The notes under the pieces: generated by a model
Databases searched by the model: none
What the model was told of the DNA's origin: nothing
The model's input: only the letters and a program-made list of their open reading frames with translations
Program-made: the position numbers and the translations under genes
Assembly (NCBI GenBank): GCA_025352265.1
Contig: JANXTS010000075.1
Coordinates: forward strand, 1 to 64,000
Source of the DNA: Variovorax sp.
GTDB lineage: Bacteria > Pseudomonadota > Gammaproteobacteria > Burkholderiales > Burkholderiaceae_C
DNA: 64,000 nt
Direction of reading: 5' to 3'
Shown here: piece after piece, positions 3,124 to 32,809 of the stretch
How positions within the stretch are numbered: position 1 is the first letter of the stretch
Layout of the letters: every line of letters begins with the position of its first letter

Positions 3124-4359
3124 ATGAGTACGGTGGCTACAAAGGGCGACGGTCATATTGGACGGATAAATACACCAGAAACCGAGCGAGAATTAACTGC
3201 CATTAAGACGTTTAACCGTCCGTCGGCCTATGTCCATCTTGACTACGGACGCAATCCGGACACATGGGCTAAGGCGTACCAAAAAGGCATTGTGCTCGAA
3301 GAACAACCGTATGGGTATCACTGGGCTCAGACTTGGGTTAATCTCAATTATTCTGCTGATGCTCCCGAGCCAAAGGCGGTGACCTTGCTTCGTCGCGGTC
3401 TCAAGTTTTTGTTTGGCTTCGATCTAATACACGCATTTCGCAATCGCAGATGTGCCGATTCGGCCGACGTCATATGGACCCACACGGAGGGTGAGTATCT
3501 TGCAGATGCCTTGCTGATGAAGTTACACCTGATGAAGCGGATTCCGCTCGTTGGACAGAGTGTTTGGTTATGGGACAAATGGCCGAAATGGAGCCCTTTG
3601 CGCAAACGCTTCCATCATTGGCTGCTCGAAGAGGTGACCGTAGCGACAACTCACAGCGCATTGAACTCGAAACTTGGCACTGAAGTGCTGGGGCGCTCAG
3701 TTATTAAAGTTCCCTTTGGTATCGAGCCGACATTCGAGGTACCAGTTTCGCAACCTCGGGCTGATGGCAGGCTGCGAGTGGTTGCACCTGGGAACGACCG
3801 GCACAGAGACTGGGACACACTAAAGAAAGTCGCCCGCGACAATTCGGACATAGAGATCGTCGTGCTCTCTAAGCGTCGGCGGGCAAGTCGACTGGTATCC
3901 GCTGACGTTCCAAACTTCGTCGTGCGCAGCGCTGTCGGCATCAAGGATCTCATAGCCGCCTACACTGACGCAGATGTCGTGGCAGTTCCGCTCCTAGGCA
4001 ACCTGCACGCTTCCGGGATTACCGTGGCAATGGAAAGCATTAACGCTGGCCGTCCCGTGGTACTTACCCGTACTGGCGGTATTGAAGATTACTTTGGGGG
4101 CACGGCTCATTATGTAGAGCCGGGCGATACGATCGGATTGGCGACTGCCATTCGGGCGGCTGCAGTGGTCGGTCGAGATCGCGACCTTCAAATTGCAAGG
4201 CGATCCCATCTGACAAATGCCGGCCTCATGATCAAAGATTTTGGCTTGCGCCATGTGTTGCTCACGCGGCTCGCTTTAGGCATCAGCACTCCTGAAGAAG
4301 ACATCGCAATCTCTTGTTTTGCACCTGTCGTTCTCGAACATTGGCATTACCCCGAATGA
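3124..4359 (+). CDS. GT-B fold glycosyltransferase (GT1/GT4-like)
   Basis: Predicted cytoplasmic glycosyltransferase of 411 residues that adds a sugar to the lipid-linked EPS repeat unit. The N-terminal half is an acceptor-type Rossmann domain. The C-terminal half has the nucleotide-sugar domain with DADVVAVPLLGNLHASGITV followed by AMESINAGRPVVLTRTGG, a GT4-like E(x)7E-type region (AMESINAG..), and a glycine-rich turn. It starts 12 bases after the wzc-like gene, and its stop overlaps the next start (ATGA at 4356-4359), so the genes are co-transcribed and probably translationally coupled. Donor and acceptor sugars cannot be read from the sequence. Confidence 0.75.
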   Translation: MSTVATKGDGHIGRINTPETERELTAIKTFNRPSAYVHLDYGRNPDTWAKAYQKGIVLEEQPYGYHWAQTWVNLNYSADAPEPKAVTLLRRGLKFLFGFDLIHAFRNRRCADSADVIWTHTEGEYLADALLMKLHLMKRIPLVGQSVWLWDKWPKWSPLRKRFHHWLLEEVTVATTHSALNSKLGTEVLGRSVIKVPFGIEPTFEVPVSQPRADGRLRVVAPGNDRHRDWDTLKKVARDNSDIEIVVLSKRRRASRLVSADVPNFVVRSAVGIKDLIAAYTDADVVAVPLLGNLHASGITVAMESINAGRPVVLTRTGGIEDYFGGTAHYVEPGDTIGLATAIRAAAVVGRDRDLQIARRSHLTNAGLMIKDFGLRHVLLTRLALGISTPEEDIAISCFAPVVLEHWHYPE

Positions 4360-21512: not shown

Positions 21513-22436
21513 GTGACCCTGATGACCCCGCCTTCTGGATCAAGATCCGCGATGACCGTTGCCACCGCTATCGTGGCGTTATGCGCAGGTTGCGGCACGC
21601 GCTCGCCGGCACCTGCCAACGCGTCTGCATCGACTGCGCAGGCCGCAACTGCACCGGCTGGCACCGCCGCACAGCCAATGAAGCCGGCGCGCGAAGGTAT
21701 GGAATATGCAGCGTTGTCGGACCTCATCGGTGAAGGCACCGGCAAGCAGGTCAAGCAAGACCTGATCGGCAAGTCGGTCAGCATCGACCTTGTCAAAGCC
21801 ACCGGGCGCAACGTGCCTGCGGGCTCCTACGCGGTGGACAGCACCGACCAGACCTTCTTCGTGTGCCGCTCCGTCGCGCCCGGCTACACGGGAGGCGTTG
21901 TAACCGCCAAGGTCCGTGACTACCGCTATCTGCCCCGAAGCAAACAGAAGATCGTCGACCTCGACCGCTGCGGACCTGAATCCGCTTCAGTCGCTGCACC
22001 GATGGCGACCGCGCCAGCACCTGCTGCTGCAGCGCCTGCGCCCTACACCGGCGGCGCCAAGCCCGGCATCGACGCAAAAGGCAACGTGACGGATTCGTCC
22101 AAGGTCGAAGCGGGCAGCGGCCGAACGGTAAAGGGCTTGAACGACTACGAGGGCGAGATCACCGGCAACCCGGCGCCCGGCAGCAAGTTCACGAAGCTGC
22201 AGATCGGCATGCCGACGAAACAAGTCACCGACATTGCCGGCCCACCCACAGACCAGGGCGCCTACATGACTGGCAAGGCCTGGATTCCTTTCTACTTTGG
22301 TGCCGACCGCCATCGTTTCGAGATGACCTACAAGGGCCAGGGCCGGCTGATCTTTGCCGGCGGCGGCATGGGCGATTTTTCGAATGGTTATTTGATCTGG
22401 ATCATCCACAACCCCAACGAAGCGGGCTACCGCTAA
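21513..22436 (+). CDS. Exported protein with C-terminal BamE/SmpA-OmlA-like domain
   Basis: Hypothetical envelope protein of 307 residues. GTG 21513 is preferred because AAAGGA lies just upstream at 21500-21505; ATG 21522 is an alternative. The N-terminus has a hydrophobic stretch MTVATAIVALCAGCG, a signal peptide with an imperfect lipobox (CAGC), then an Ala/Thr/Pro-rich linker. A central region contains VPAGSYAVDSTDQTFFVC. The C-terminal part, FTKLQIGMPTKQVTDIAGPP, followed by aromatic strands, has the GM..eV....G.P pattern of SmpA/OmlA (BamE) domains. It stands alone, divergent from the nir operon. The role is probably structural in the outer envelope, but this is not established. Confidence 0.6.
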   Translation: MTLMTPPSGSRSAMTVATAIVALCAGCGTRSPAPANASASTAQAATAPAGTAAQPMKPAREGMEYAALSDLIGEGTGKQVKQDLIGKSVSIDLVKATGRNVPAGSYAVDSTDQTFFVCRSVAPGYTGGVVTAKVRDYRYLPRSKQKIVDLDRCGPESASVAAPMATAPAPAAAAPAPYTGGAKPGIDAKGNVTDSSKVEAGSGRTVKGLNDYEGEITGNPAPGSKFTKLQIGMPTKQVTDIAGPPTDQGAYMTGKAWIPFYFGADRHRFEMTYKGQGRLIFAGGGMGDFSNGYLIWIIHNPNEAGYR

Positions 22437-22598
22437 GCGGGTGACCGGTGCACGCAGCCGGGCACCAACACTGGGCGCGCGGTGTTCTCCTGCATGGTCC
22501 GTCGCTCGCGTCTGTCGGGCGGCCCACACCTCACCGCCAAACTCATGCGGCGCACTCTTAGATAAGTGTAACCCTCAGATAACTCTTTGGAGTCAGCC

Positions 22599-22796
22599 AT
22601 GTTCAACCCCGTGCAAGAGACCGTGGTCGGCCCGCCAGCCGACCAATCCGCAGACTTGGCAGTCGATGTGACGCAGCTCGTCGCGGTCGAACAGTGGACC
22701 AAGCAGCTCGGCGTGACCGAGGCGGAACTGCGTCTCGCAGTGGCAGAGGTGGGCACATCAGCCGACGAAGTGCGAACGCATCTCGGCGTGCAATGA
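22599..22796 (+). CDS. Small DUF3606-family protein
   Basis: A 65-residue soluble protein starting at ATG 22599. The segment VEQWTKQLGVTEAELRLAVA followed by EVGTSADEVRTHL matches the DUF3606 pattern (W-x5-V-x3-L-x2-A-V-x2-VG). These small proteins are common in Proteobacteria and their function is unknown. The gene stands alone with 126 bases to the convergent helicase gene. Confidence 0.7.
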   Translation: MFNPVQETVVGPPADQSADLAVDVTQLVAVEQWTKQLGVTEAELRLAVAEVGTSADEVRTHLGVQ

Positions 22797-22923
22797 CCTG
22801 CTTGAGCGCCTAACCGACTGACTCTGAGTCGCGCCATCCGCGGCGGTAATCGGTCCATTCCCGACGAAGGTGGACCGCGCTGCATGCAGCACTTTGAAAA
22901 AGACCGCGTTCAGCGTCGGACCG

Positions 22924-25242
22924 TCACAGGTGCTCAATGTGCCACCACGGCGGCAGCAAGCGCTGCACTTCGGGCCGCGCGAAGCGATCGTCGAGGAGGT
23001 ACAGCACACCCGCATCCTGCTCGGTGCGAATTACGCGGCCGGCGGCCTGCACCACCTTGCGCAGGCCGGGATAGAGGTAGGTGTATTCGTAGCCTTGGCC
23101 GAAGCGCTCCTGCATCCGCTTGCGCATCACGTCGTTCAATTCATTGTGTTGCGGCAGGCCGAGACTTGCGATAAAAGCGCCGACCAGACGTTCCCCGGGG
23201 AGGTCGATTCCTTCACCAAAGGCGCCGCCCAGCACAGCGAAGCCAATGCCCTGCCCGCCCGGCACGAAGCGTGCGACGAACTCCTCGCGTTCGGGCTCCC
23301 GCATGCCGCGTGACTGCGCCCACATCGGCACGCCGGGATGGCGCGCAGCCATCGCATCGCGAGCGCTGTCGAGGTAGTCGAAGCTACTGAAAAACGCCAG
23401 ATAGTTGCCGGGTCGCTGGTGGTACTGCGCCGCGATGATGTCGGTGAGATGCGACAGCGATCGGCTGCGGTCGCGGTAGCGGGTCGATATCTGCATCGCC
23501 ACGCGCACTGTGAGCTGGTGTGTTTGAAAAGGCGACCCGACATCGAGCTGGGCAGTGTGGTGCGGCATGCCGAGCGCGTCTCGATAGAACGCGAAAGGCG
23601 CGATCGTTCCGGAGAAGCAGGCGACCGAGAGCGCGCGTTCGAACCTCGGCTTCAAAAAATAGGCCGGGATGAGGTTGCGTATTGCAAGGCCTCGCGGGCC
23701 GTCCGGATCTACATCGAGCGTGCTTTCAAGAACGGAGTGCTCGCCGAACTCGTCCGACAGCCGGACAAAACGAAGCATGTCGAAGAAGAACGGCTGCATA
23801 GGGCCATTCGCCTCTGCAGGGTGATCTGCGAAGTGATCAGAGATGGTGCCGATCGCTTCTTGCAGCGCGCGGTGCAGCCGCTCGGGAATCTCGTTGCGGA
23901 TGGCGTACGCACTCGGCACATCGCTCCGCTGCGCCAGCTGCAGCGAATCCCATTCGCGCTCCAGCTTGCCGAGCGCCTGCTTGATATGGCGCGGCGCCAC
24001 GCGCATCGCAATGGCGAGCGCGCCGCTGTCGAGCTCGGCTGAGTACATGCTGCGCGCCCGCTCGATGAGGTTGTGCGCCTCGTCGACCAGCACCGCGGCG
24101 CGCCACTCTTCGTCGATCATCAGCGCGTACAGGAACGCACTGCCGTCGAAGTAGTAGTTGTAGTCGGCGACCACGACATCGGTCCAGCGCACGAGTTCCT
24201 GCGCGAGAAAGTACGGGCAGACGCGGTGCGCCGCAGCGACGTTGCGTACGGCTTCGCGGTTAAGCCAGGTCTGCCCGATCGCCTCGCTGCGTGCAGCCGG
24301 CAAGCGATCGTAGAAGCCGGCCGCCAATGGGCAGGCATCACCATTGCAGGCGCGGCCTGGATACTCGCAAACCTTCTCTCGCGCAGCGAGTTCGAGCACG
24401 CGCAACGTGGGGCAGTTTTTTCGCAGCACAAGCAGCGCATCGAGCGCCACTGCGCGGCCGGAGGTCTTGGCGGTCAGGAAGAAGAGCTTGTCGGTGCGAT
24501 GCGACGCCCAGCCTTTCAGCAGCGAAAAAAGCGTTGCGACGGTCTTGCCGATGCCGGTCGGTGCTTGCGCGATCAGGCAGCGCTCGGAAGCGGCTGCGCG
24601 GTACACGCCTTCTGCCAGTTCACGCTGGCCCGGTCGAAAGCCGGCATGCGGAAAGACGAGCGACGACAAGCCACGCGCCAACGCAGTGCGATGCAAGGAC
24701 TCCTGCCTCGCCCACACCATGAATCGGCCGCAGAGCGTTTCGAATTCGTGTTGCAAGTCGGCTCGGGTACGTTGCTCCTCGAGCGCGGTTTCGTCGCCAC
24801 TGTGAATGTCCAGGTAGACAAGCGCGACCGTGATGTGGGCCATCGAATGCTTCTCGCACAGCATGGCCGCATAGGTGCGAGCCTGGGCCCAGTGCAACGC
24901 GCGGTGGTTGCCCTTGATCGCGTCGAATTCGCCGCGAAACGTTTTGATCTCTTCGACCCGGCCGAGGTCGAGATCGAAGCCATCGGCACGCCCCCGAACG
25001 CGCAGGCCGCCGAAAGTCGAAGACAGCGAAACCTCGCCCTCAAAGCCGGGCCCGCGCCGCGATTGAACGAGGTGATGGCCGGCGATGCCTTCTTGCGCGC
25101 TGGGCGCGGGCGCAAATCGCAAATCGAGGTCGCCGCTCTTCGCTGCGAAAGCGCACAGCGACTTGACGGACACCGTCAGCTCGAACGCCGGAGGTGGCGG
25201 CGTTGCTACGCCGGAAGGGAGGGAGTCGGACAGAAGCGCCAT
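22924..25242 (-). CDS. RecB-type PD-(D/E)XK nuclease domain fused to XPD/DinG-like Fe-S helicase
   Basis: A 772-residue protein from ATG 25242; the frame is open further upstream but would overlap the preceding gene. Residues 50-130 look like a RecB/Cas4-type nuclease: GHH (55-57), RADG with Asp87, EEIK with Glu98 and Lys100, and the QxxxY motif at Gln120-Tyr124. The rest is an SF2 helicase: Walker A APTGIGKT at 227-234, Cys292, Cys299, Cys304 and Cys342 as a candidate Fe-S cluster, and DEAH at 387-390. A C-terminal helicase domain contains VVQAAGRVIRTEQDAGVLYL. It should unwind and cut DNA with 5'-3' polarity, by family analogy. It starts 20 bases after the MmcB-like gene, last in the LexA-box unit. 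Confidence 0.85.
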   Translation of the reverse strand: MALLSDSLPSGVATPPPPAFELTVSVKSLCAFAAKSGDLDLRFAPAPSAQEGIAGHHLVQSRRGPGFEGEVSLSSTFGGLRVRGRADGFDLDLGRVEEIKTFRGEFDAIKGNHRALHWAQARTYAAMLCEKHSMAHITVALVYLDIHSGDETALEEQRTRADLQHEFETLCGRFMVWARQESLHRTALARGLSSLVFPHAGFRPGQRELAEGVYRAAASERCLIAQAPTGIGKTVATLFSLLKGWASHRTDKLFFLTAKTSGRAVALDALLVLRKNCPTLRVLELAAREKVCEYPGRACNGDACPLAAGFYDRLPAARSEAIGQTWLNREAVRNVAAAHRVCPYFLAQELVRWTDVVVADYNYYFDGSAFLYALMIDEEWRAAVLVDEAHNLIERARSMYSAELDSGALAIAMRVAPRHIKQALGKLEREWDSLQLAQRSDVPSAYAIRNEIPERLHRALQEAIGTISDHFADHPAEANGPMQPFFFDMLRFVRLSDEFGEHSVLESTLDVDPDGPRGLAIRNLIPAYFLKPRFERALSVACFSGTIAPFAFYRDALGMPHHTAQLDVGSPFQTHQLTVRVAMQISTRYRDRSRSLSHLTDIIAAQYHQRPGNYLAFFSSFDYLDSARDAMAARHPGVPMWAQSRGMREPEREEFVARFVPGGQGIGFAVLGGAFGEGIDLPGERLVGAFIASLGLPQHNELNDVMRKRMQERFGQGYEYTYLYPGLRKVVQAAGRVIRTEQDAGVLYLLDDRFARPEVQRLLPPWWHIEHL

Positions 25243-25262
25243 GCAAGCAAAACAAGCCTGAT

Positions 25263-26057
25263 TCAACAGATCGAAGATGGCATTGCGCAATCGGTCAGCA
25301 GCACCTGCAAATCTTCTTCGAAGCCGGCCACGGGTTGCGCTTTGGCGAGTGCCATCCACACCGCGAAAGGAATGCGGGCCTGCGAGCGATGCACTGCCGC
25401 ACGCGCCACCACGAGCCGCTCTCCTTCCAGCATCAGTACGCCGCATTCGACTGGAATTTCGTCCGCTGACCCGATCGGACGGCCGCGCGCATCGCACCCC
25501 AAGACGTACCAGCACTCGCCGCCCAGATCGAGGTACGCCGCGCGCTTGTCGGGCTTCTTCAAGTCCGCCATCAGGTCGGAGCGACGCACCTTGATTTCGT
25601 GAACGATCGGTTGCGCATACGCCTCGACGCTGGTGTTTCGAATAGAAAAAACATCCGGCCGCGCAATACACCAGCGATGCGGATCGCCTTCGTTGGCACC
25701 TGCCAGCCGCGCACGCAAACTCAGGGTGCGCCAGGCAATGCGGCCGGCACGCGTCATCTCGCGTGCCACACGTTCGACCAGCGCCTCGTGCGCCGACAAC
25801 GCGGCACGATTGAGGACCAGACTGTCGGCGATGTGCGCGATGCCGCGGTCGGTGACGCGCAGGGTTTCGTGGCCGAGCGCCGACCGCGTTCGCTCCAGCA
25901 GACCGACCGCGAGCAGATCGATTTCAATAGCGTCGCAACACGGCCAGCCGGCCGACCGGTACATCTCGCGCAGGCGGCGCGCGTGGGTGCGGCTGAGCAC
26001 GGTGTCGCCAGACGATGGCTCGACCGGGACTTGGTGGGCGATGGATTCGGCAAGCAT
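25263..26057 (-). CDS. MmcB-like predicted PD-(D/E)XK DNA repair protein
   Basis: A 264-residue protein from ATG 26057. A TTG at 26087 overlaps the dnaE2 stop and would add ten residues. The N-terminal third resembles a winged helix (IEIDLLAVGLLERTRSAL, LRVTDRGIAHIADSL). The C-terminal part carries a PD-(D/E)XK arrangement: Pro134-Asp135 in ARPDVFSIR, then VHEIKVRRSDLMADLKKPDK with Glu154 and Lys156, and YLDLGGECWYVLG. The block EIKVRRSDLMADLKKPD is close to the core of MmcB-family repair proteins (EVK.S..DF.AD.KWPDY). It lies between dnaE2 and the nuclease-helicase in one tight unit, which supports a repair role. Nuclease activity is predicted only. Confidence 0.68.
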   Translation of the reverse strand: MLAESIAHQVPVEPSSGDTVLSRTHARRLREMYRSAGWPCCDAIEIDLLAVGLLERTRSALGHETLRVTDRGIAHIADSLVLNRAALSAHEALVERVAREMTRAGRIAWRTLSLRARLAGANEGDPHRWCIARPDVFSIRNTSVEAYAQPIVHEIKVRRSDLMADLKKPDKRAAYLDLGGECWYVLGCDARGRPIGSADEIPVECGVLMLEGERLVVARAAVHRSQARIPFAVWMALAKAQPVAGFEEDLQVLLTDCAMPSSIC

Positions 26058-26083
26058 GGTGCGAGGTGAACGACGTTGTCTGG

Positions 26084-29000
26084 TCAATGGAAATCACGGC
26101 TCTTGTTTTGGCCCGCGAGCCGCCCGAGCCACGGCGTAAGGTCCTTAAAACCTTGGGCCAGCAAATGCCGCACGGTGCCACCGCTGGCCACGTCGCGCTG
26201 CCACACGCCTTTGACGGCAAGCAGCTTCGACTTCAATAACGGCTCACGCTGTTCTTCGACCAGATCGTTCCAGACGATGACATTGACGATGCCGGTCTCG
26301 TCTTCGAGCGAGACGAAGATGGTGCCCTTGGCTGTTTGCGGTCGCTGACGCATTGTGACGATGCCGCAGGCACGCACCACGCGGCCGTGCGGCAGATCGT
26401 GCAACTCGGCAGCACTCAGAAGCTTAAGGCGCGCCATGCGGGGCCGCAACAGCGCCAGCGGATGGCGGCGCAACGTGAGGTTCATGGATGCGTAGTCGCC
26501 GACGATCTCTTCGCCTTCGATGCCCGGTGGTAACAGCAAGGGCGTTTCGTGGATCGGCACGCCTTTGAGCAAGGCCGGTGCGCGGCGCTGCGCCGTGGCG
26601 TCCCATACCTGTTGGCGGCGATGACCCGACAACACCATCAACGAGTCGGCGGCGGCGAGTGCGGCCATGTCGCGCGCGTCGAGATCGGCACGCACTGCCA
26701 GGTCTTCGGTGCTGGTGAAGGGGGCGAATGCGCGAGCCTGGAGAAGGCGCTGGGCACCTGCTGCGCTCAAGTTGCCGATGCGGCGCAGCCCGAGCCTTAT
26801 CGCTGGCTGCCCTTGTCTTGTTGCTTCACTGTTCGGAAAAGGACCAGGAGAACGAGGTAATGCAACCTCCAGCGTGCTGTCCATTTCGCTGACGGTCACG
26901 TCCACCGCCCGCACCTCGACGCCATGGCGCTGTGCGTCCTGCAGCAACTGCGACGCCGAATAAAACCCCATCGGTTGCGAGTCCAACATGGCAGCCAGAA
27001 AGCAGGCCGGCTCGTAGCATTTGAGCCAACTGCTCACGACCACCAGCAACGCGAAGCTGGCCGCGTGACTTTCAGGAAACCCGTATTCGCCGAAGCCTTT
27101 GACCTGGCTGAAGATGGCTTCCGCAAAGGGCCGGTCGTAGCCGTTGTCGACCATGCCGTCGATCAGCTTGTTCTGGAACTTCTCGATGTGTCCGGTGTGC
27201 TTCCAGGCCGCCATGGCACGCCGCAAGGCATCGGCTTCGTCGGGGGTGAAGCGCGCCGCGATCATGGCGATCTGCATCACCTGCTCCTGGAAAATCGGCA
27301 CGCCGAGCGTGCGGCCGAGGGCCTTCTTCAGGTCGGGATATTTGTATTCGATCTCTTCCCCGCGGCGCAGCTTCTCGCGGTTTTTCAGGTACGGATGCAC
27401 CATGCCGCCCTGAATCGGTCCTGGCCGCACGATCGCGACTTCAATCACCAAGTCGTAAAAGCAACGCGGCTGCAGGCGCGGCAGCATCGACATCTGCGCG
27501 CGGCTTTCGATCTGGAACACGCCGACGGTGTCGGCCGCGCAGATCATGTCGAACACTTTCGGGTCGTCGTTCGGAATCTGATGCATCTCGACGGCCGTGC
27601 CGCGCCACTGGTTCATGAAGTCGAGACCGCGGCGGATGGCGCTCAGCATGCCGAGCGCCAGCACATCGACCTTGAGCATGCCCATCGCTTCGAGATCGTC
27701 CTTTTCCCACTGGATGATCGAGCGGTCTTTCATCGACGCCTTCTCGACCGGGACCAGCCGAGTGAGCTTGGTGTGGGTCAGCACGAAGCCGCCGACGTGC
27801 TGACTCAAATGGCGCGGAAATCCTTTGAGCTCGTTGGTCAGCTCAAGCCATTGCGCCAACTTGCGCGGTGGTTCGTGCACGCCCGATCGTTCCATGGCCA
27901 GCGCCAGGTGCTGATCGAGGACGGAGGTGTCGAACCAGTAATGGTCTTTGGCGAATTCGTCGACCAGGCGCTCGTCGATGCCCATCGCCTTGCCGACATC
28001 GCGCAACGCGCTGCGCGAGCGATAGCAAATCACAACGGCGGCAATGGCGGCTCGCTCGCGGCCATACTTTTCGTAGATGTACTGAATAATTTCTTCGCGC
28101 CGCTGGTGCTCGAAGTCGACGTCGATGTCGGGCGGTTCGTTGCGCTCTCGGCTCAGGAAACGCTCGAACAAGAGATGGCCGACCATCGGGTCGATGGCAG
28201 TGATACCCAGGCAATAGCAGACCGCCGAATTGGCGGACGAGCCGCGACCCTGGCACAGGATTTTTCGCTCGTTGGCAAAGCGCACGATATCTTCGACCGT
28301 GAGGAAGAACATCTCATAGCGCTTTTCCGCGATGAGCGCGAGTTCATGCTCGACCTGCGTTCGAACCCGATCCGGCACGCCTTCCGGATAGCGGCCAGCT
28401 GCACCCTCCCAGGTCTTGCGCATCAGCGTTTGCGCCGGCGTTTCTCCGTTGCCGAGCAGCTCCAGCGGGTACGCGTAATGCTTCTTGATTTCGTCAGGGT
28501 CGAAGCGGCAACGCTCCATCACCACCAACGTGTTAGCGAGCAGTTGGGGCGAATACAAATCGACCAGCCGCAAGCGTGGCCGCAGATGCCGCTCGGCGTT
28601 GGACTGCAGCGCGAAGCCGCATTCCGCTACGCTCTTGCCCTCGCGGATCGCAGTGACCACATCGTGCAGCGGCTTGCGCGATCGCTTGTGCATGTGCACG
28701 TCGCCGGCCGCGACCAGCGGCACGCCGGTGGCCTCGCCGACCTGCTCCAGCGTGAGCAGCCACAGGTCGTCGTCCATCTCGTTGAGCAGTTCGAGGGCGA
28801 TCCAGACGTGATCGCCGAACAGGGTTTTGGCATGTGCGACGTGAGCCGATAACGCTTCGACATCGACCGTGCGATGCGGCACCAGGAGAATTTCGCAGTG
28901 CTGCAGCGATGCGACGTCGCTCTCCTTGCTTTTTTCGTTGTCATGAAATTCATCGCCGACGTCCTCTGGCCAGGTCACGATGTACTCGCCTTTGGGCGCG

Positions 29001-29458
29001 CTGGTGGTGCGCGCCGCGGTGATGAATTCGCAAAGGTTGCCCCAGCCTTGCAAGTCGTGCGCGATTGCCACCAGTTTGAAGCGGTCGAAGTTGAATTCGC
29101 TGCCGAAGAGCAACCGGAAATCGGGGTTACGCGTGAGCGGCGGTTCGTCGGCGTGCTCACGCTCGTGGTCGGCCAGCGCCTGCGGGTGCTCGCGCAACGC
29201 CACATGCGCCCGCACGATACCGGCGACCGAGCATTCATCGGTGATGGCCAGCGCCTTGTAGCCCAGGTGATAGGCCTGGGTCACCAACTCTTCGGGTCGA
29301 GAGGCACCGCGCTGAAAGCTGAAGTTGGTCAGGCAATGCAGCTCGGCGTAGTCGGGCAGCGTCGATGACGTGGGCTTTTGTTTCGGCGGTTTTGGTGGCA
29401 GCGAATGCAGCTTGACCGGACGGCGCGCCATCAATTGTTTGTCGCTGAGTTCAGGCAT
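26084..29458 (-). CDS. dnaE2: Error-prone DNA polymerase DnaE2 (ImuC)
   Basis: C-family DNA polymerase of 1124 residues that performs damage-induced translesion synthesis with ImuA and ImuB. ATG 29458 is chosen because it overlaps the imuB stop by 8 bases; earlier in-frame starts lie inside imuB. The PHP domain begins ELHCLTNFSFQRGASRPEEL and includes LAITDECSVAG. The palm has the catalytic acidic motif PPDIDVDFEHQRR. Other family features are FPRHLSQHVGGFVLTH, VDVLALGMLSAIRRGL and the C-terminal OB-fold region (RACGIVTMRQRPQTAKGTIF). The length matches DnaE2 rather than the replicative DnaE1. Confidence 0.95.
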   Translation of the reverse strand: MPELSDKQLMARRPVKLHSLPPKPPKQKPTSSTLPDYAELHCLTNFSFQRGASRPEELVTQAYHLGYKALAITDECSVAGIVRAHVALREHPQALADHEREHADEPPLTRNPDFRLLFGSEFNFDRFKLVAIAHDLQGWGNLCEFITAARTTSAPKGEYIVTWPEDVGDEFHDNEKSKESDVASLQHCEILLVPHRTVDVEALSAHVAHAKTLFGDHVWIALELLNEMDDDLWLLTLEQVGEATGVPLVAAGDVHMHKRSRKPLHDVVTAIREGKSVAECGFALQSNAERHLRPRLRLVDLYSPQLLANTLVVMERCRFDPDEIKKHYAYPLELLGNGETPAQTLMRKTWEGAAGRYPEGVPDRVRTQVEHELALIAEKRYEMFFLTVEDIVRFANERKILCQGRGSSANSAVCYCLGITAIDPMVGHLLFERFLSRERNEPPDIDVDFEHQRREEIIQYIYEKYGRERAAIAAVVICYRSRSALRDVGKAMGIDERLVDEFAKDHYWFDTSVLDQHLALAMERSGVHEPPRKLAQWLELTNELKGFPRHLSQHVGGFVLTHTKLTRLVPVEKASMKDRSIIQWEKDDLEAMGMLKVDVLALGMLSAIRRGLDFMNQWRGTAVEMHQIPNDDPKVFDMICAADTVGVFQIESRAQMSMLPRLQPRCFYDLVIEVAIVRPGPIQGGMVHPYLKNREKLRRGEEIEYKYPDLKKALGRTLGVPIFQEQVMQIAMIAARFTPDEADALRRAMAAWKHTGHIEKFQNKLIDGMVDNGYDRPFAEAIFSQVKGFGEYGFPESHAASFALLVVVSSWLKCYEPACFLAAMLDSQPMGFYSASQLLQDAQRHGVEVRAVDVTVSEMDSTLEVALPRSPGPFPNSEATRQGQPAIRLGLRRIGNLSAAGAQRLLQARAFAPFTSTEDLAVRADLDARDMAALAAADSLMVLSGHRRQQVWDATAQRRAPALLKGVPIHETPLLLPPGIEGEEIVGDYASMNLTLRRHPLALLRPRMARLKLLSAAELHDLPHGRVVRACGIVTMRQRPQTAKGTIFVSLEDETGIVNVIVWNDLVEEQREPLLKSKLLAVKGVWQRDVASGGTVRHLLAQGFKDLTPWLGRLAGQNKSRDFH

Positions 29459-30869
29459 AGATTCCCTGCAAGAACCAGCGTGTTTCATTCGTTTCGCGCA
29501 AGGCCGAAATTCTTTCGCGATAAACCCAGACCAAACCAACCTCTGGACTTTCGGCCACGTAGTAGTCGCGCACCACCGGCTCGCCGCCTTCGTTGCGGTC
29601 ATCGGCCCACCACCCGCCTTCGAGCCGCTGCGGACCGACCATCCGCCGCAACCGCCCGTGATACCAGGGATGCCCTTCGCGCATTTCGAGACGCATCGGC
29701 TGGCGCAGCAGCCAGGGCGGAAAGTTGCTCACTCCTTCCCTCTTGGGGGAAAGGCAGGGACGGGGGCTCCCCCCGCGGCGCCCCGACGCAAGCACCTTCC
29801 GCAACGCCGGCCCCCATTCCTGCATCGCCTCCGGCCGATGGTCTGCACGCGCCACCGGCACCTGCACCTGCTGCGCCCCCAACCGCGCACTCAGCCGCTC
29901 TACCAGCTCGTGCAACTTGTCCCCCTTGCGGTTGTCTTCAGGCAGAAAACTCGTGCTCGCGCCGGCCCAGGGCGATGTATCGAGCGAGCGCAATCGCAGC
30001 CAGCTCGCCGGCGCACCGAGCTTGGTCAACGCCAGTCGCTCGCTCATCAACTTGCGCAGATGCGCCATGTCTTGCGTGGGCTCGGCCGTTCGCACCGTCA
30101 CGTTCTGGTACGGCGGCAGGTTCACCCCGTTGAAGCGCCTCAAATCGAGCGTCCATTCGAGTTCCAGCGCCAACACGCCGCGCTGACGCGCACGCAGCCA
30201 GATCTGCAGCGCCGACAGCAAGCGGTTGGCCGACCACATGAGCTCGTGCGCGTTCTCGGCCAGCGCAGGGAGCTCCAACTTTTGGTCGAACACCTCCGGC
30301 AAGGTGAGCCACGTGTGTTTCTCTGGGCGCAGGCCCCATGCCATGTCGAGCGCTTCGCGCAGCGCCGTGCCGAAGCGCCGCGAAAGACCGCCGCGCGGCA
30401 GCGCCGCCACGTCGCCCCAGGTGCGGCAACCCATGCGTTCCAGCACGTCGAGATGTTCGCGCGCAACCGTGAGCGCGCCGAGCGGCAAGGCGGCCGGCAC
30501 ATCAACGGGCGGCTTGTGGCCGCGCGCAAAAAGCCGCAGCCGTGCCAACGCGATCAAGCCGTTGGCGCCCTGCACTTTCTGGATGCGCGTGCCGGGCGCC
30601 GGGTTCCACGCCGTCATCAGGCGCATCAACGACTGCTGACCACCCCAGAGTCGCTCGCAGGCCGAGACTTCGAGCAGCAGCGCTTCGTCGAGCCAGGTGA
30701 CACGTGGCGTGAACTGCAGCGCCCACCAGCCGAGGGTTTCGATGGAAGGGGGCGCAGCGACAGTCTTGTCGGCGGCTGGCGCGCCAAGCGTCGTTGCCGC
30801 TGCCGTTGCCGTTGCAGACACAGGCGCCGGATCCTCTTCAGGCTGCCACCGCAACGCGATCCACTGCAT
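29451..30869 (-). CDS. imuB: ImuB, catalytically degenerate Y-family polymerase-like protein
   Basis: A 472-residue mutasome adaptor. In the known system ImuB lacks polymerase activity and bridges the beta clamp, ImuA and DnaE2. The protein starts MQWIALRWQ and lacks the DMDxFFA acidic motif of active Y-family enzymes. A low-complexity Ala/Thr/Pro insertion (about residues 12-40) follows, then the Y-family palm region WWALQFTPRVTWLDEALLLE and an HhH-like segment around MGCRTWGDVAALPRGGLSRR. It overlaps imuA by 32 bases and dnaE2 by 8, so the three are translationally coupled. Confidence 0.9.
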   Translation of the reverse strand: MQWIALRWQPEEDPAPVSATATAAATTLGAPAADKTVAAPPSIETLGWWALQFTPRVTWLDEALLLEVSACERLWGGQQSLMRLMTAWNPAPGTRIQKVQGANGLIALARLRLFARGHKPPVDVPAALPLGALTVAREHLDVLERMGCRTWGDVAALPRGGLSRRFGTALREALDMAWGLRPEKHTWLTLPEVFDQKLELPALAENAHELMWSANRLLSALQIWLRARQRGVLALELEWTLDLRRFNGVNLPPYQNVTVRTAEPTQDMAHLRKLMSERLALTKLGAPASWLRLRSLDTSPWAGASTSFLPEDNRKGDKLHELVERLSARLGAQQVQVPVARADHRPEAMQEWGPALRKVLASGRRGGSPRPCLSPKREGVSNFPPWLLRQPMRLEMREGHPWYHGRLRRMVGPQRLEGGWWADDRNEGGEPVVRDYYVAESPEVGLVWVYRERISALRETNETRWFLQGIYA

Positions 30870-31641
30870 GCGATTGCCCCTCCTTCCTCCGCAAGTCCAG
30901 GCGGACCACGGTTGCGCCGGGATTTGCTTCTTCTTGCGCGCCTTGCAGTTCCTGCATGCGCCGCTTGCGCCGCAACTGGCTGGCCGCCAGCAACGCCGTC
31001 ATGCGTTCGCTTCGAGCAGGCAAAGTCAACGGCATCGCCAGAGGCGGGCCACGGCGCTTGAGCAAATGGACGTCCATTTGCCCGCCTTCTGCGGGCACCA
31101 CCTGCAGCCGCAACCGTGCCGGGGAAGCTGACTGCGCCATGGATTCGGGCCTGAAGACGAACAGCAAACCTTCATGTTGGGCAGCAGCGAGCTGAAGCCG
31201 GCGTAACTCCCCCACGCGCGCCTGTGGCAACCAGGCCAAAACGCCGGCCACGTCAGCGCAACGCAGGGCCTGCTCACAAGCCCAAAGCCGGGCGGCGGAC
31301 GCCTCGCTGCGCACCCACATCAGCGCCTCGACCGGCAACCCGGCTGCGGCGAGCGCCGGGCCGAAGGGCTCGTAAGGCGCACCGATCAGCACCACCGGCC
31401 CGCCCCGCGTTTCGACCGCGCGCGACAGTACCGGCAGCAGCAGTTGCCATACATGCGCTTCGGGCGCCGCTTGCAGCACCTCCGTCATCGCGCCGATCGG
31501 CCAGCCGCCCCCCGGCAGCTCGGCGTCGAGCGCGGGGTGGCCGGTGCCGAGCACCGGCATGTCGGCGCTGCCCAGCTCGTCACCGCGCCAGAGATTCTGC
31601 CGCGCGGACGGGGAAAAGGAGTCGAAGGAGAGGAGGCCCAT
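30838..31641 (-). CDS. imuA: ImuA, RecA/SulA-like mutasome component
   Basis: A 267-residue ImuA-type protein, first gene of the LexA-controlled unit. It has the ImuA core WRGDELG, GHPALDAELPGGGWPIGAMT and EVLQAAPEAHVWQLLLPVL, then VVLIGAPYEPFGPAL. It resembles a RecA fold, but without a proper Walker A lysine motif, as is usual for ImuA. ATG 31641 lies 13 bases from the LexA box. Its 3' end overlaps imuB by 32 bases. It cooperates with ImuB and DnaE2 in SOS mutagenesis. Confidence 0.9.
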   Translation of the reverse strand: MGLLSFDSFSPSARQNLWRGDELGSADMPVLGTGHPALDAELPGGGWPIGAMTEVLQAAPEAHVWQLLLPVLSRAVETRGGPVVLIGAPYEPFGPALAAAGLPVEALMWVRSEASAARLWACEQALRCADVAGVLAWLPQARVGELRRLQLAAAQHEGLLFVFRPESMAQSASPARLRLQVVPAEGGQMDVHLLKRRGPPLAMPLTLPARSERMTALLAASQLRRKRRMQELQGAQEEANPGATVVRLDLRRKEGQSHAVDRVAVAA

Positions 31642-31654
31642 AATGAATCGTTAA

Positions 31655-31670
31655 CTGTATTTTTATACAG
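31655..31670 (-). promoter_or_regulatory. LexA (SOS) box of the imuA operon
   Basis: CTGTATTTTTATACAG is a perfect CTGT-N8-ACAG palindrome with the A/T-rich core expected of a LexA operator. It lies 13 bases upstream of the imuA start and includes a TATAAA-like -10 on the minus strand (TACTGTATAAAAATACAG region). Repression by LexA and induction by DNA damage follow for the whole downstream unit. Confidence 0.92.
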
Positions 31671-31728
31671 TATTCCGAAAACCCCAACCACTTCTTTGCA
31701 ACAGTCCCAGGCGATCATTGCCGGCTCG

Positions 31729-31971
31729 ATGCCCGATTCACTTACTCCGCCCTTCGATCGGTCGCATCGTTTGACCCGTGCAAGCTTCCTGCGCCTCGGT
31801 ACAGCACTCTCCGTCGTCGGCTGCGGCACCTGGATCGGCTTCGACCGCTCTCCAGGCAGCGCTGAATACCAGCGCTTGCCGCAATGCCGCCTTCTGGCGC
31901 CGCAACGTGGGGTCGATGGCGATTTAGACCTTCAGCAGATCAATCGAAGAAGCGCAGCAGCAACCGATTGA
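31729..31971 (+). CDS. Possible small exported protein or remnant
   Basis: An 80-codon frame in the gap between imuA and the hydrolase gene. It reads MPDSLTPPFDRSHRLTRASF, then LRLGTALSVVGCGTWIGF, which resembles a signal-peptide core, and codon third positions in the first 50 codons are mostly G/C. There is no clear ribosome binding site, and the last 30 bases overlap the convergent hydrolase gene. No family is recognised. It could be the broken start of a former exported protein or chance. The gap otherwise holds only the LexA box. Confidence 0.22.
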   Translation: MPDSLTPPFDRSHRLTRASFLRLGTALSVVGCGTWIGFDRSPGSAEYQRLPQCRLLAPQRGVDGDLDLQQINRRSAAATD

Positions 31972-32809
31972 CCTCGTCGGCCCGCTCGTACTGCACCCAG
32001 TGCCCGGCGGCATCGACCACCGCGCCTTCACGATTCGGATGACCAGTGGTCAATCGCGCCACCAGCGGCCGCGGATCGGCGGTGACGTCGCACTCGCCCC
32101 ACATCAGCATCAAAGGACACGTCAGCGTGTCGATGGCCGCCTGCAACCCACCGGCCATCGACACATCCTTGCTGCGGAATCGCGTGCCGTGGCATGAAAG
32201 GTCGTGGATATCGAAAGCCAGCGGATCGAAGGCCTTGTCGTGCAGCATGAGTGCGTCGAGGTTGTGCTTGAGGGCAGCACGCTGCGCTGCGCGATCGACC
32301 GAGCGGCGCCAGTTGATCATGTCCAGCGTGAGCCGGCGCAACGAGGCATGGCCGCCGCTGCCGATCAGCGCCAGACGACGAACCGTATGCCGCGTGGCAA
32401 AGGTCGACGCCACCAAACCACCGAACGAAAACCCGCCGAGATCGACAGGCGTGCCGGCACCGATCAGCAGGTCGAGGGTGCCGCCCAGCGCATTCAGCAA
32501 TGGATCGATCGGCGCTTGGCCTCCGACAGGCGCCGGCGGCTTGTCGGAATCGAGAAAGCCGGGCATGTCGGGGAGCCAGACAGTGTGCCGGGCCGACAGC
32601 GCCTCGACGTTGCGAATCCAGTGCATCCAGCTGCCATGACCACCGTGCAGCAGGACTATGGGCGGGCGGGTCGGGTCGACGCCGTCGCCTTTAAAACAGC
32701 GCCAACGCACATGTACGCCTTCATGCACTGGATCATGGCGCGTCGACAGCACGTCGATGCGCTCGACGAAAGTGCGCGTCGCGGGGTCTGAATCTGGCGC
32801 GAAATTCAT
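31940..32809 (-). CDS. Alpha/beta hydrolase
   Basis: A 289-residue alpha/beta-hydrolase fold enzyme. Visible features: IVLLHGGHGSWMHW (oxyanion HG), LPDMPGFLDSD, the nucleophile elbow GFSFGG near residue 127, an acidic residue in MWGECDVTADPRPL, and the catalytic His in AAGHWVQYE near 270. This is the layout of esterases and C-C bond hydrolases such as MhpC; the substrate is unknown. Its start forms an ATGA overlap (32806-32809) with the cytochrome b561 stop, so the two are co-transcribed. Confidence 0.8.
   Translation of the reverse strand: MNFAPDSDPATRTFVERIDVLSTRHDPVHEGVHVRWRCFKGDGVDPTRPPIVLLHGGHGSWMHWIRNVEALSARHTVWLPDMPGFLDSDKPPAPVGGQAPIDPLLNALGGTLDLLIGAGTPVDLGGFSFGGLVASTFATRHTVRRLALIGSGGHASLRRLTLDMINWRRSVDRAAQRAALKHNLDALMLHDKAFDPLAFDIHDLSCHGTRFRSKDVSMAGGLQAAIDTLTCPLMLMWGECDVTADPRPLVARLTTGHPNREGAVVDAAGHWVQYERADEVNRLLLRFFD

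What the first reader, a model, noticed from the sequence alone, without database searches (positions are those of the whole stretch)
22924..31670. LexA-controlled mutasome extended by an MmcB-like protein and a nuclease-helicase
Seen: one LexA box followed by five minus-strand genes with overlaps or gaps of at most 26 bases: imuA, imuB (32-base overlap), dnaE2 (8-base overlap), a PD-(D/E)XK protein and a RecB-nuclease/XPD-helicase fusion. Known: imuA-imuB-dnaE2 is the SOS translesion cassette. Inferred: the last two genes are co-induced and supply DNA cutting and unwinding to the same response. A combined translesion-plus-resection operon is not something I recognise as described.
Basis: partly seen in the sequence, partly recalled or inferred. 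Interest (0 to 1): 0.78.

Follow-up and report, generated by a model that had tools for sequence, protein, structure and literature searches.

The report
SOS operon joins nucleases to mutasome
A bacterium related to Variovorax carries one damage-switched gene set that joins an error-prone DNA copying machine to two DNA-cutting and unwinding enzymes; relatives suggest these two belong to a module for opening DNA crosslinks, in which the nuclease FAN1 can be exchanged for another nuclease.

Summary
In detail: one LexA box, then imuA-imuB-dnaE2, an MmcB-family PD-(D/E)XK nuclease and an EndoDinG (RecB-like nuclease + XPD-type helicase), with overlaps or gaps of at most 26 bases. The five-gene operon was seen in no other genome examined. 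Its halves recur separately: imuABC-mmcB in Variovorax and kin (dnaE2 within 1 kb of mmcB in 41 of 80 named loci), and mmcB near EndoDinG in 25 of 49 family genomes holding both. In the closest named relative EndoDinG has its own LexA box, in a spacer that the window lacks, so the window looks like an operon fusion.

The larger finding is a partner swap. In 28 of 35 EndoDinG genomes of a phylum-wide draw, EndoDinG lies directly behind FAN1, the crosslink nuclease. Where full FAN1 is missing, the MmcB-like gene is usually present. LexA boxes precede the leader gene (FAN1 22 of 31, and 3 of 9 more; mmcB leading a pair 11 of 20; controls 4 of 468), never EndoDinG as second gene (0 of 47).

Best reading: an SOS-induced crosslink-unhooking pair wired to translesion synthesis. 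Co-induction is supported indirectly; no transcript or activity was tested.

The parts
31655..31670 (.). LexA (SOS) box CTGTATAAAAATACAG upstream of imuA
   Evidence: highest score of the 15 imuA regions, though it is one of the 9 sites that trained the matrix
30838..31641 (-). imuA
   Evidence: NCBIfam NF033429, 211.8 bits
29451..30869 (-). imuB (apparently reduced form, no Pfam IMS hit itself)
   Evidence: 32-base overlap with imuA; BLASTP E 1e-30 to an IMS-bearing protein at the imuB position of another genome
26084..29458 (-). dnaE2 (error-prone DNA polymerase III alpha paralogue)
   Evidence: NCBIfam NF004225, 1386.7 bits; ATG at 29458 gives the 8-base overlap with imuB
25263..26057 (-). 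MmcB-family PD-(D/E)XK nuclease with an N-terminal extension
   Evidence: P128-D129 and E148-x-K150 invariant in 21 proteins; profile match to MmcB (PF06319)
22924..25242 (-). EndoDinG: RecB-like PD-(D/E)XK nuclease + FeS XPD/DinG-type helicase
   Evidence: Pfam hits; in 14 proteins D87, E98-x-K100, Q120, Y124, GIGK, DEAH and C292/C299/C304/C342 invariant, H56 in 13; PDB 9kqh over residues 21-767, E 1.6e-101

Best explanation
The window holds a fused SOS operon that would make, from one LexA-controlled promoter, both halves of an interstrand-crosslink (or bulky-lesion) tolerance pathway. The MmcB-like nuclease incises the damaged strand beside the block, doing FAN1's work. EndoDinG, an FeS helicase of the XPD/DinG type with a RecB/EXO5-like nuclease, unwinds and trims the incised strand. 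ImuA-ImuB-DnaE2 then fills the gap across the unhooked lesion, with mutations. Shown by sequence: gene order, the LexA box, intact catalytic motifs, MmcB kinship, SOS boxes of the separate modules in relatives, and FAN1 or the MmcB-like gene as alternative companions of EndoDinG. Inferred: co-transcription, all enzymatic activities, crosslink substrate, physical cooperation. The fusion looks recent: the closest named relative keeps a spacer of about 500 bases with its own LexA box before EndoDinG, and the window lacks it.
For: Operon anatomy and single LexA box. In 120 family genomes mmcB-like (M) is in 63 and EndoDinG (E) in 53 (two of these, G033 and G090, partial hits); 49 hold both (Fisher p 4e-16), within 12 kb in 25, 21 on one strand. 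In the order draw all 6 M genomes of 230 are among the 23 E genomes (p 5e-7). FAN1 directly upstream of E in 28 of 35 phylum-draw genomes and in all 3 family genomes with full FAN1. Full FAN1 and M together: 0 of 53 family E genomes (Fisher 1.7e-4) and 0 of 35 in the phylum draw (2.9e-4). LexA boxes: FAN1 leaders 19 of 28 and 3 of 3; mmcB leading a pair 11 of 20; lone E 6 of 26; E as second gene 0 of 28 and 0 of 19; controls 4 of 468. FAN1-EndoDinG directly upstream of imuA-imuB-dnaE2 on the same strand in two genomes of one genus of another family. L122 spacer and box. Published: PA1865 (PaFAN1) and PA1866 of P. aeruginosa respond to UV-C outside the three known regulons (passages of PMC12796719); MmcB protects Caulobacter from mitomycin C and mediates cisplatin resistance (passage of PMC9578287).
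Against: The five-gene arrangement was seen in the window genome alone. Leaving the window out, M lies near imuB in 2 of 58 family genomes with both, and E near imuB in 1 of 48. Many operons lack a detectable LexA box: 9 of 28 FAN1 leaders and 9 of 20 mmcB leaders, and 6 of 9 further FAN1 leaders in the order draw. Several of the 19 FAN1 boxes are weak (12.6-12.8 bits) and come from close relatives. mmcB not leading a pair has few boxes, 4 of 42, and none of 61 named loci scanned (of 80) has one in the 500 bases before the mmcB match. The EndoDinG tree needs at least 7 changes of partner, so the association is labile. Genomes in the counts are related, so p values overstate. The AlphaFold model of the MmcB-like protein was useless (pLDDT 45). 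EndoDinG with neither partner found exists (G114, G442). The MmcB profile match covers E-x-K but not the PD aspartate.
Confidence: 0.6

Rival explanations
1. The two extra genes serve double-strand-break end processing (resection) in the same SOS response; the RecB-like domain and helicase act at ends, not at crosslinks.
For: The nuclease domain is RecB-like (PDDEXK_1 near its cut-off; conserved motif set); PMC11981726 (section 13) compares this domain with RecE, AddA, EXO5, Cas4 and Dna2.
Against: The commonest companion of EndoDinG is FAN1, a 5' flap nuclease of crosslink repair (activity from PMC4103454, passages). MmcB is tied to mitomycin C and cisplatin. Neighbouring recombination genes were not searched for, so this is not a direct test.
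Confidence: 0.2
2. The genes are neighbours by compaction only: mmcB-like and EndoDinG act in separate repair routes from ImuABC, and the fusion gives co-expression without functional coupling.
For: Both genes are usually far from imuABC; EndoDinG in the closest named relative keeps its own SOS box.
Against: dnaE2 lies within 1 kb upstream of mmcB-like in 41 of 80 named loci; EndoDinG lies beside imuABC also in G022 (divergent) and in G180 and G264 (behind FAN1, same strand).
Confidence: 0.2
3. The helicase-nuclease is an anti-phage or CRISPR type IV DinG relative.
For: PADLOC model typeIV_DinG (PDLC01439) matches it at E 1.3e-113.
Against: No PADLOC hit for ImuA, ImuB or the MmcB-like protein (DnaE2 not scanned); the recurrent companions are repair genes and LexA boxes; NCBIfam Csf4 is far below its cut-off, 21.1 of 400 bits.
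Confidence: 0.04

Closest known systems
ImuA-ImuB-DnaE2 (imuABC) SOS mutasome cassette
   Same: Same three genes in the same order behind a LexA box
   Different: Two nuclease genes appended with 26- and 20-base gaps; ImuB seems reduced
EndoDinG group of DinG-like proteins (PMC11981726) and PDB 9kqh
   Same: N-terminal PD-(D/E)XK, four-cysteine FeS domain, XPD-type helicase; near full-length match to 9kqh
   Different: The section read mentions neither SOS control nor a FAN1 or MmcB partner; the Bdellovibrio representative itself was not compared by sequence here
Caulobacter MmcB (PF06319)
   Same: EIKVxRxDLL catalytic segment, profile match probability 97.2%; seven weak hits of the window family's profile fall on PF06319 genes
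   Different: An extra N-terminal region; PF06319 itself does not reach the window protein; set in an operon with a helicase-nuclease
Bacterial FAN1 (VRR-NUC; PaFAN1)
   Same: Position directly before EndoDinG and SOS box before the leader gene; PD-(D/E)XK superfamily (PMC9635880, passages)
   Different: No VRR-NUC match in the window genome; the MmcB-like protein is a positional replacement, not shown to be a FAN1 homologue

Membership tests
ImuABC cassette | imuA, imuB, dnaE2 in one row on one strand | tested here: met
ImuABC cassette | LexA box upstream | tested here: met
ImuABC cassette | damage-induced mutagenesis needing the three genes | not testable with these tools
   needs mutants
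EndoDinG | N-terminal PD-(D/E)XK with H, D, E and K | tested here: met
   D87, E98, K100 invariant in 14 proteins, H56 in 13 of 14; the further E named in PMC11981726 was not checked
EndoDinG | four-cysteine FeS domain and XPD-type helicase motifs | tested here: met
   C292, C299, C304, C342, Walker A and DEAH invariant; Pfam DEAD_2, Helicase_C_2
EndoDinG | endonuclease and helicase activity | not testable with these tools
   biochemistry needed
MmcB (PF06319) | match to the Pfam model | tested here: not met
   no hit up to E 5; none in the whole genome at E 0.001
MmcB (PF06319) | homologous catalytic segment by profile comparison | tested here: met
   hhalign probability 97.2%, E 3.2e-11 over 69 columns holding E-x-K but not the PD aspartate; profile hits coincide with PF06319 genes in 7 of 7 genomes
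MmcB (PF06319) | fold of the PD-(D/E)XK domain | tested here: inconclusive
   AlphaFold2 pLDDT 45
FAN1 | VRR-NUC domain | tested here: not met
   no match in the window genome
Type IV CRISPR DinG | Csf4 model at its cut-off | tested here: not met
   NCBIfam cas_csf4 21.1 of 400 bits; PADLOC typeIV_DinG does match, E 1.3e-113
Type IV CRISPR DinG | csf genes and CRISPR array beside it | not tested
   only the operon's own proteins were scanned

The most novel reading that the evidence does not exclude
FAN1 or MmcB-like nuclease plus EndoDinG is a widespread SOS-controlled crosslink-unhooking module within the window's class of Proteobacteria, a bacterial counterpart in function of the FAN1 and FANCJ/XPD steps of eukaryotic crosslink repair. 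Its nuclease slot is filled by either of two PD-(D/E)XK families, VRR-NUC or MmcB, and in the window the whole unhook-then-bypass pathway has been fused into one operon with the mutasome.
Probability: 0.45. Interest if true: 0.82.

Novelty: new variant of a known kind. Interest (0 to 1): 0.66.

Why it matters
The data give the MmcB-like proteins of Burkholderiales and EndoDinG a concrete, testable role in damage repair. They offer a reason why PaFAN1 (PA1865) and PA1866 respond to UV-C outside the listed SOS regulon, since FAN1 leaders often carry LexA-like boxes, some of them weak; and they predict that FAN1 and the MmcB-like nuclease do the same job. The window ties incision to mutagenic gap filling in one presumed transcript, so damage survival and mutation rate could be tested together in one operon.

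Tried and rejected
Conserved five-gene operon: rejected, not found outside the window genome in what was examined. Window genome also holding FAN1: rejected. Defence system: judged unlikely. Plasmid-borne MmcB-like relatives (17 records, 29.5-33.5% identity over at most 74% of the query): two neighbourhoods read show no gene annotated as imu, FAN1 or DinG, but most genes there are 'hypothetical'; led nowhere. Acetoanaerobium hit: the region has no annotation. Structure of the MmcB-like protein: pLDDT 45, so no fold search was run. ImuB by library models: no relevant hit for the window protein or for three homologues of it; settled by homology to an IMS-bearing protein. Papers: ten searches, of which some listings were cut (20 of 940, 20 of 25, 12 of 134, 10 of 29), showed no paper on a FAN1-EndoDinG operon under LexA or on an imuABC operon with these nucleases. 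Two FAN1 papers (PMC4201288, PMC5925792) are not held, and most subscription papers are missing, so a description elsewhere cannot be excluded.
Full report
WHAT IS THERE. Five minus-strand genes lie between 22924 and 31641, behind one LexA box at 31655-31670. The box is the only near-consensus site in 64 kb and the only one scoring 8 bits or more between 22901 and 31700. A simple scan of 22400-32000 found no sigma-70-like promoter, not even before imuA, so it says little; it found 3 terminator-like sites (9.2 expected from shuffles), two of them on the minus strand inside dnaE2 and EndoDinG. The host genome has 4.5 Mb in 108 contigs. Among named records the mmcB-like protein is nearest (87%) to a MAG called Variovorax sp. 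RYN_564, so the host is probably a Comamonadaceae close to Variovorax; that is an inference from one protein.

THE PROTEINS. ImuA and DnaE2 are clear NCBIfam members. ImuB hits no library model, but matches at E 1e-30 a protein at the imuB place of another genome (G264) that bears the IMS domain; it looks like a reduced ImuB. The fourth protein hits no Pfam model. Its family (21 proteins aligned) keeps P128-D129 and E148-x-K150 invariant. Its profile finds weak C-terminal matches in seven genomes of one distant family, and in all seven these coincide with PF06319 MmcB genes. Profile-profile comparison gives 97.2% probability, E 3.2e-11, over a stretch that holds E-x-K but not the PD aspartate. 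It is thus an MmcB relative with an extra N-terminal region. The fifth protein carries a RecB-like nuclease and an FeS XPD-type helicase. In 14 relatives its motif residues are invariant, except H56, present in 13, and it matches PDB 9kqh over nearly its full length. This architecture is that of the EndoDinG group of PMC11981726 (section 13 read), whose authors mention endonuclease activity of a Bdellovibrio member as unpublished data.

CONSERVATION OF THE NEIGHBOURHOOD. In 120 genomes of the family, mmcB-like occurs in 63, EndoDinG in 53 (G033 and G090 by partial hits only) and ImuB in 89 (tallied from listed places, weak EndoDinG-like helicase hits left out). mmcB-like and EndoDinG occur together in 49 and are within 12 kb in 25 of these, 21 on one strand. 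mmcB-like lies near imuB in 3 of 59 (the window, G071, G022) and EndoDinG near imuB in 2 of 49 (the window, G022). Of these 80 loci (mostly Variovorax, with Xenophilus, Pseudacidovorax, Polaromonas and less well named records), 41 have dnaE2 within 1 kb upstream of mmcB-like, 8 within 1-10 kb, 25 have none despite at least 5 kb of sequence, and 6 are too short upstream to tell; EndoDinG follows mmcB-like in 2 (L122, L123), 73 loci having at least 3 kb downstream. The five-gene row was seen in no other genome examined.

A FUSION. In the closest named relative, L122, mmcB ends at 1126 and EndoDinG can begin at the ATG at 1630, about 500 bases on; a LexA box lies at 1606-1621 just before it. The window lacks this stretch: EndoDinG begins 20 bases after mmcB's stop. 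In L122 no dnaE2 match was found in the 240 bases before mmcB, where the contig ends. The second such locus, L123, has no box of 8 bits or more. The simplest reading is that separately SOS-controlled pieces were fused under the imuA box in the window's lineage. An assembly error was not excluded.

PARTNER SWAP. In four family genomes EndoDinG occurs without mmcB-like (G003, G010, G079, G114). In the first three the gene directly before EndoDinG is FAN1, with VRR_NUC, FAN1_HTH and FANC_SAP domains in G003. No other of the 120 genomes has a full FAN1; G016, which holds mmcB-like and EndoDinG, and G027 have short VRR_NUC frames. In 349 genomes of the phylum, 35 have full EndoDinG, all in the window's class. 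FAN1 lies directly upstream in 28, on another contig in 1 (G363), mmcB-like is present in 4 (G000, G020, G088, G369), and neither was found in 2 (G114, G442). None of these held both a full FAN1 and mmcB-like; Fisher p is 1.7e-4 for the family and 2.9e-4 for the phylum draw; the draws share five EndoDinG genomes of the window's family or fewer, so they are nearly separate. Eight genomes of the phylum draw have FAN1-sized VRR-NUC proteins (E 1e-20 or better) without EndoDinG, and mmcB-like occurs without EndoDinG in 14 of 63 family genomes, so neither nuclease needs EndoDinG. In 230 genomes of the order, 23 have EndoDinG and 6 mmcB-like, all 6 within the 23 (p 5e-7). FAN1 is adjacent in 12 of the 23 and mmcB-like in 4, with pairs in two further families (G466, G579); three new genomes (G565, G653, G548) have no adjacent partner, and for the 14 new genomes FAN1 elsewhere was not searched. 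FAN1 and EndoDinG are also next to each other in four named Burkholderia records (B. multivorans, B. stagnalis, B. cenocepacia, B. arboris), the four Burkholderia among seven Burkholderiales records with EndoDinG; one Caballeronia and two Cupriavidus records showed no FAN1 on the same record. A quick tree of 83 EndoDinG proteins, labelled by the partner found in the genome, needs 7 changes between FAN1 and MmcB, 9 with the two partnerless rows as a third state (shuffled mean 27.5); well supported branches force 4 to 5 (quick method, simple model). Partners have probably switched several times.

SOS CONTROL OUTSIDE THE WINDOW. A matrix made from nine imuA boxes was scanned from 350 bases upstream to 60 downstream of gene starts. 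Sites of 12 bits or more: FAN1 leading EndoDinG 19 of 28 (phylum draw) and 3 of 3 (family); mmcB-like leading an adjacent EndoDinG on the same strand 11 of 20; mmcB-like otherwise 4 of 42; EndoDinG without adjacent partner 6 of 26; EndoDinG as second gene 0 of 28 behind FAN1 and 0 of 19 behind mmcB-like; other long open frames of the same loci 4 of 468; imuA 17 of 17 (nine of these trained the matrix). Of the three control hits in the first run one was the FAN1 gene of L104. L122, where a second-place EndoDinG has its own box after a long spacer, is not in these counts. In the order draw 3 of 9 further FAN1 leaders, 1 of 2 mmcB-like leaders and 1 of 3 lone EndoDinG had a box. No box stands before mmcB in 61 of the 80 named loci that were scanned; in these Variovorax-type loci control by the imuA box would have to reach across a gap of mostly about 300 bases. 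Boxes thus tend to sit where an operon leader is, which argues that EndoDinG is SOS-controlled through its leader. Related genomes make the p values too small, and several FAN1 boxes of close relatives score only 12.6-12.8.

LINK TO IMUABC ELSEWHERE. In G180 and G264, one genus of another family, FAN1-EndoDinG lies on the same strand directly upstream of a LexA box and imuA-imuB-dnaE2. In G022, EndoDinG is divergent from imuA with two boxes between them, and mmcB-like follows dnaE2. The join of EndoDinG to the mutasome therefore probably arose more than once.

MECHANISM. Proposed: LexA release makes all five proteins together; the MmcB-like nuclease cuts beside the block, EndoDinG unwinds and trims, ImuABC fills the gap across the remaining lesion. 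The sequence shows intact motifs and the regulatory site; activity, substrate and order of action are inferred. Published support: MmcB is SOS-regulated and protects from mitomycin C and cisplatin, and a joint action with translesion polymerases in crosslink removal had been hypothesised (PMC9578287, passage seen); FAN1 cuts 5' flaps and acts in crosslink repair (PMC4103454, passages); PA1865 (PaFAN1) and PA1866 respond to UV-C in P. aeruginosa outside the three known regulons (PMC12796719, passages). That PA1866 is EndoDinG is my inference from the usual gene order; no call tested it. The FANCJ/XPD comparison rests on the helicase family and on general knowledge.

NOVELTY. Parts known: imuABC, MmcB, FAN1, EndoDinG. 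The searches, some with cut listings, showed no paper on the FAN1-EndoDinG pairing under LexA, on the exchange of FAN1 for an MmcB-like nuclease, or on an imuABC operon that includes them. A survey of imuB neighbourhoods, PMC3765255, has no occurrence of 'nuclease', 'VRR' or 'DinG' as word starts, and PMC12926913 on DnaE2 associations has none of 'helicase' (passages only). Earlier work not held here may have noted such neighbours: PMC9635880 (passages) says of another VRR-Nuc subfamily, citing Iyer 2006, that it is encoded upstream of helicases, and that VRR-Nuc members including the FAN1 group are encoded next to DNA-metabolism genes.

Noticed in passing
L122:1194-1538 (-): A small convergent open frame (114 aa) lies in the spacer between mmcB-like and EndoDinG of the closest named relative; the window lacks the spacer.
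   Followed up: no
plasmid records H1-H17: Divergent MmcB-like relatives (29.5-33.5% identity) sit on 17 plasmids, 13 of Burkholderia and 13 predicted conjugative; the two neighbourhoods read hold mostly hypothetical genes.
   Followed up: partly
L077:6754-6769: A strong LexA box (32 bits) stands about 950 bases upstream of an mmcB-EndoDinG pair, before another open frame: a possible further SOS gene.
   Followed up: no
L151:7101, L152:12724, L154:11044, L168:12541 and other Variovorax loci: A second LexA box recurs about 0.3-2 kb downstream of mmcB in many Variovorax loci, its target not identified.
   Followed up: no
L274:3622-3637: A very strong LexA box (38 bits) lies about 2.6 kb downstream of the FAN1-EndoDinG operon of G003, with a weaker one at 4310; targets not identified.
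   Followed up: no
plasmids collection, H25-H31: EndoDinG homologues (28-34% identity) occur in Bacillota and Legionella records; their partners were not examined.
   Followed up: no
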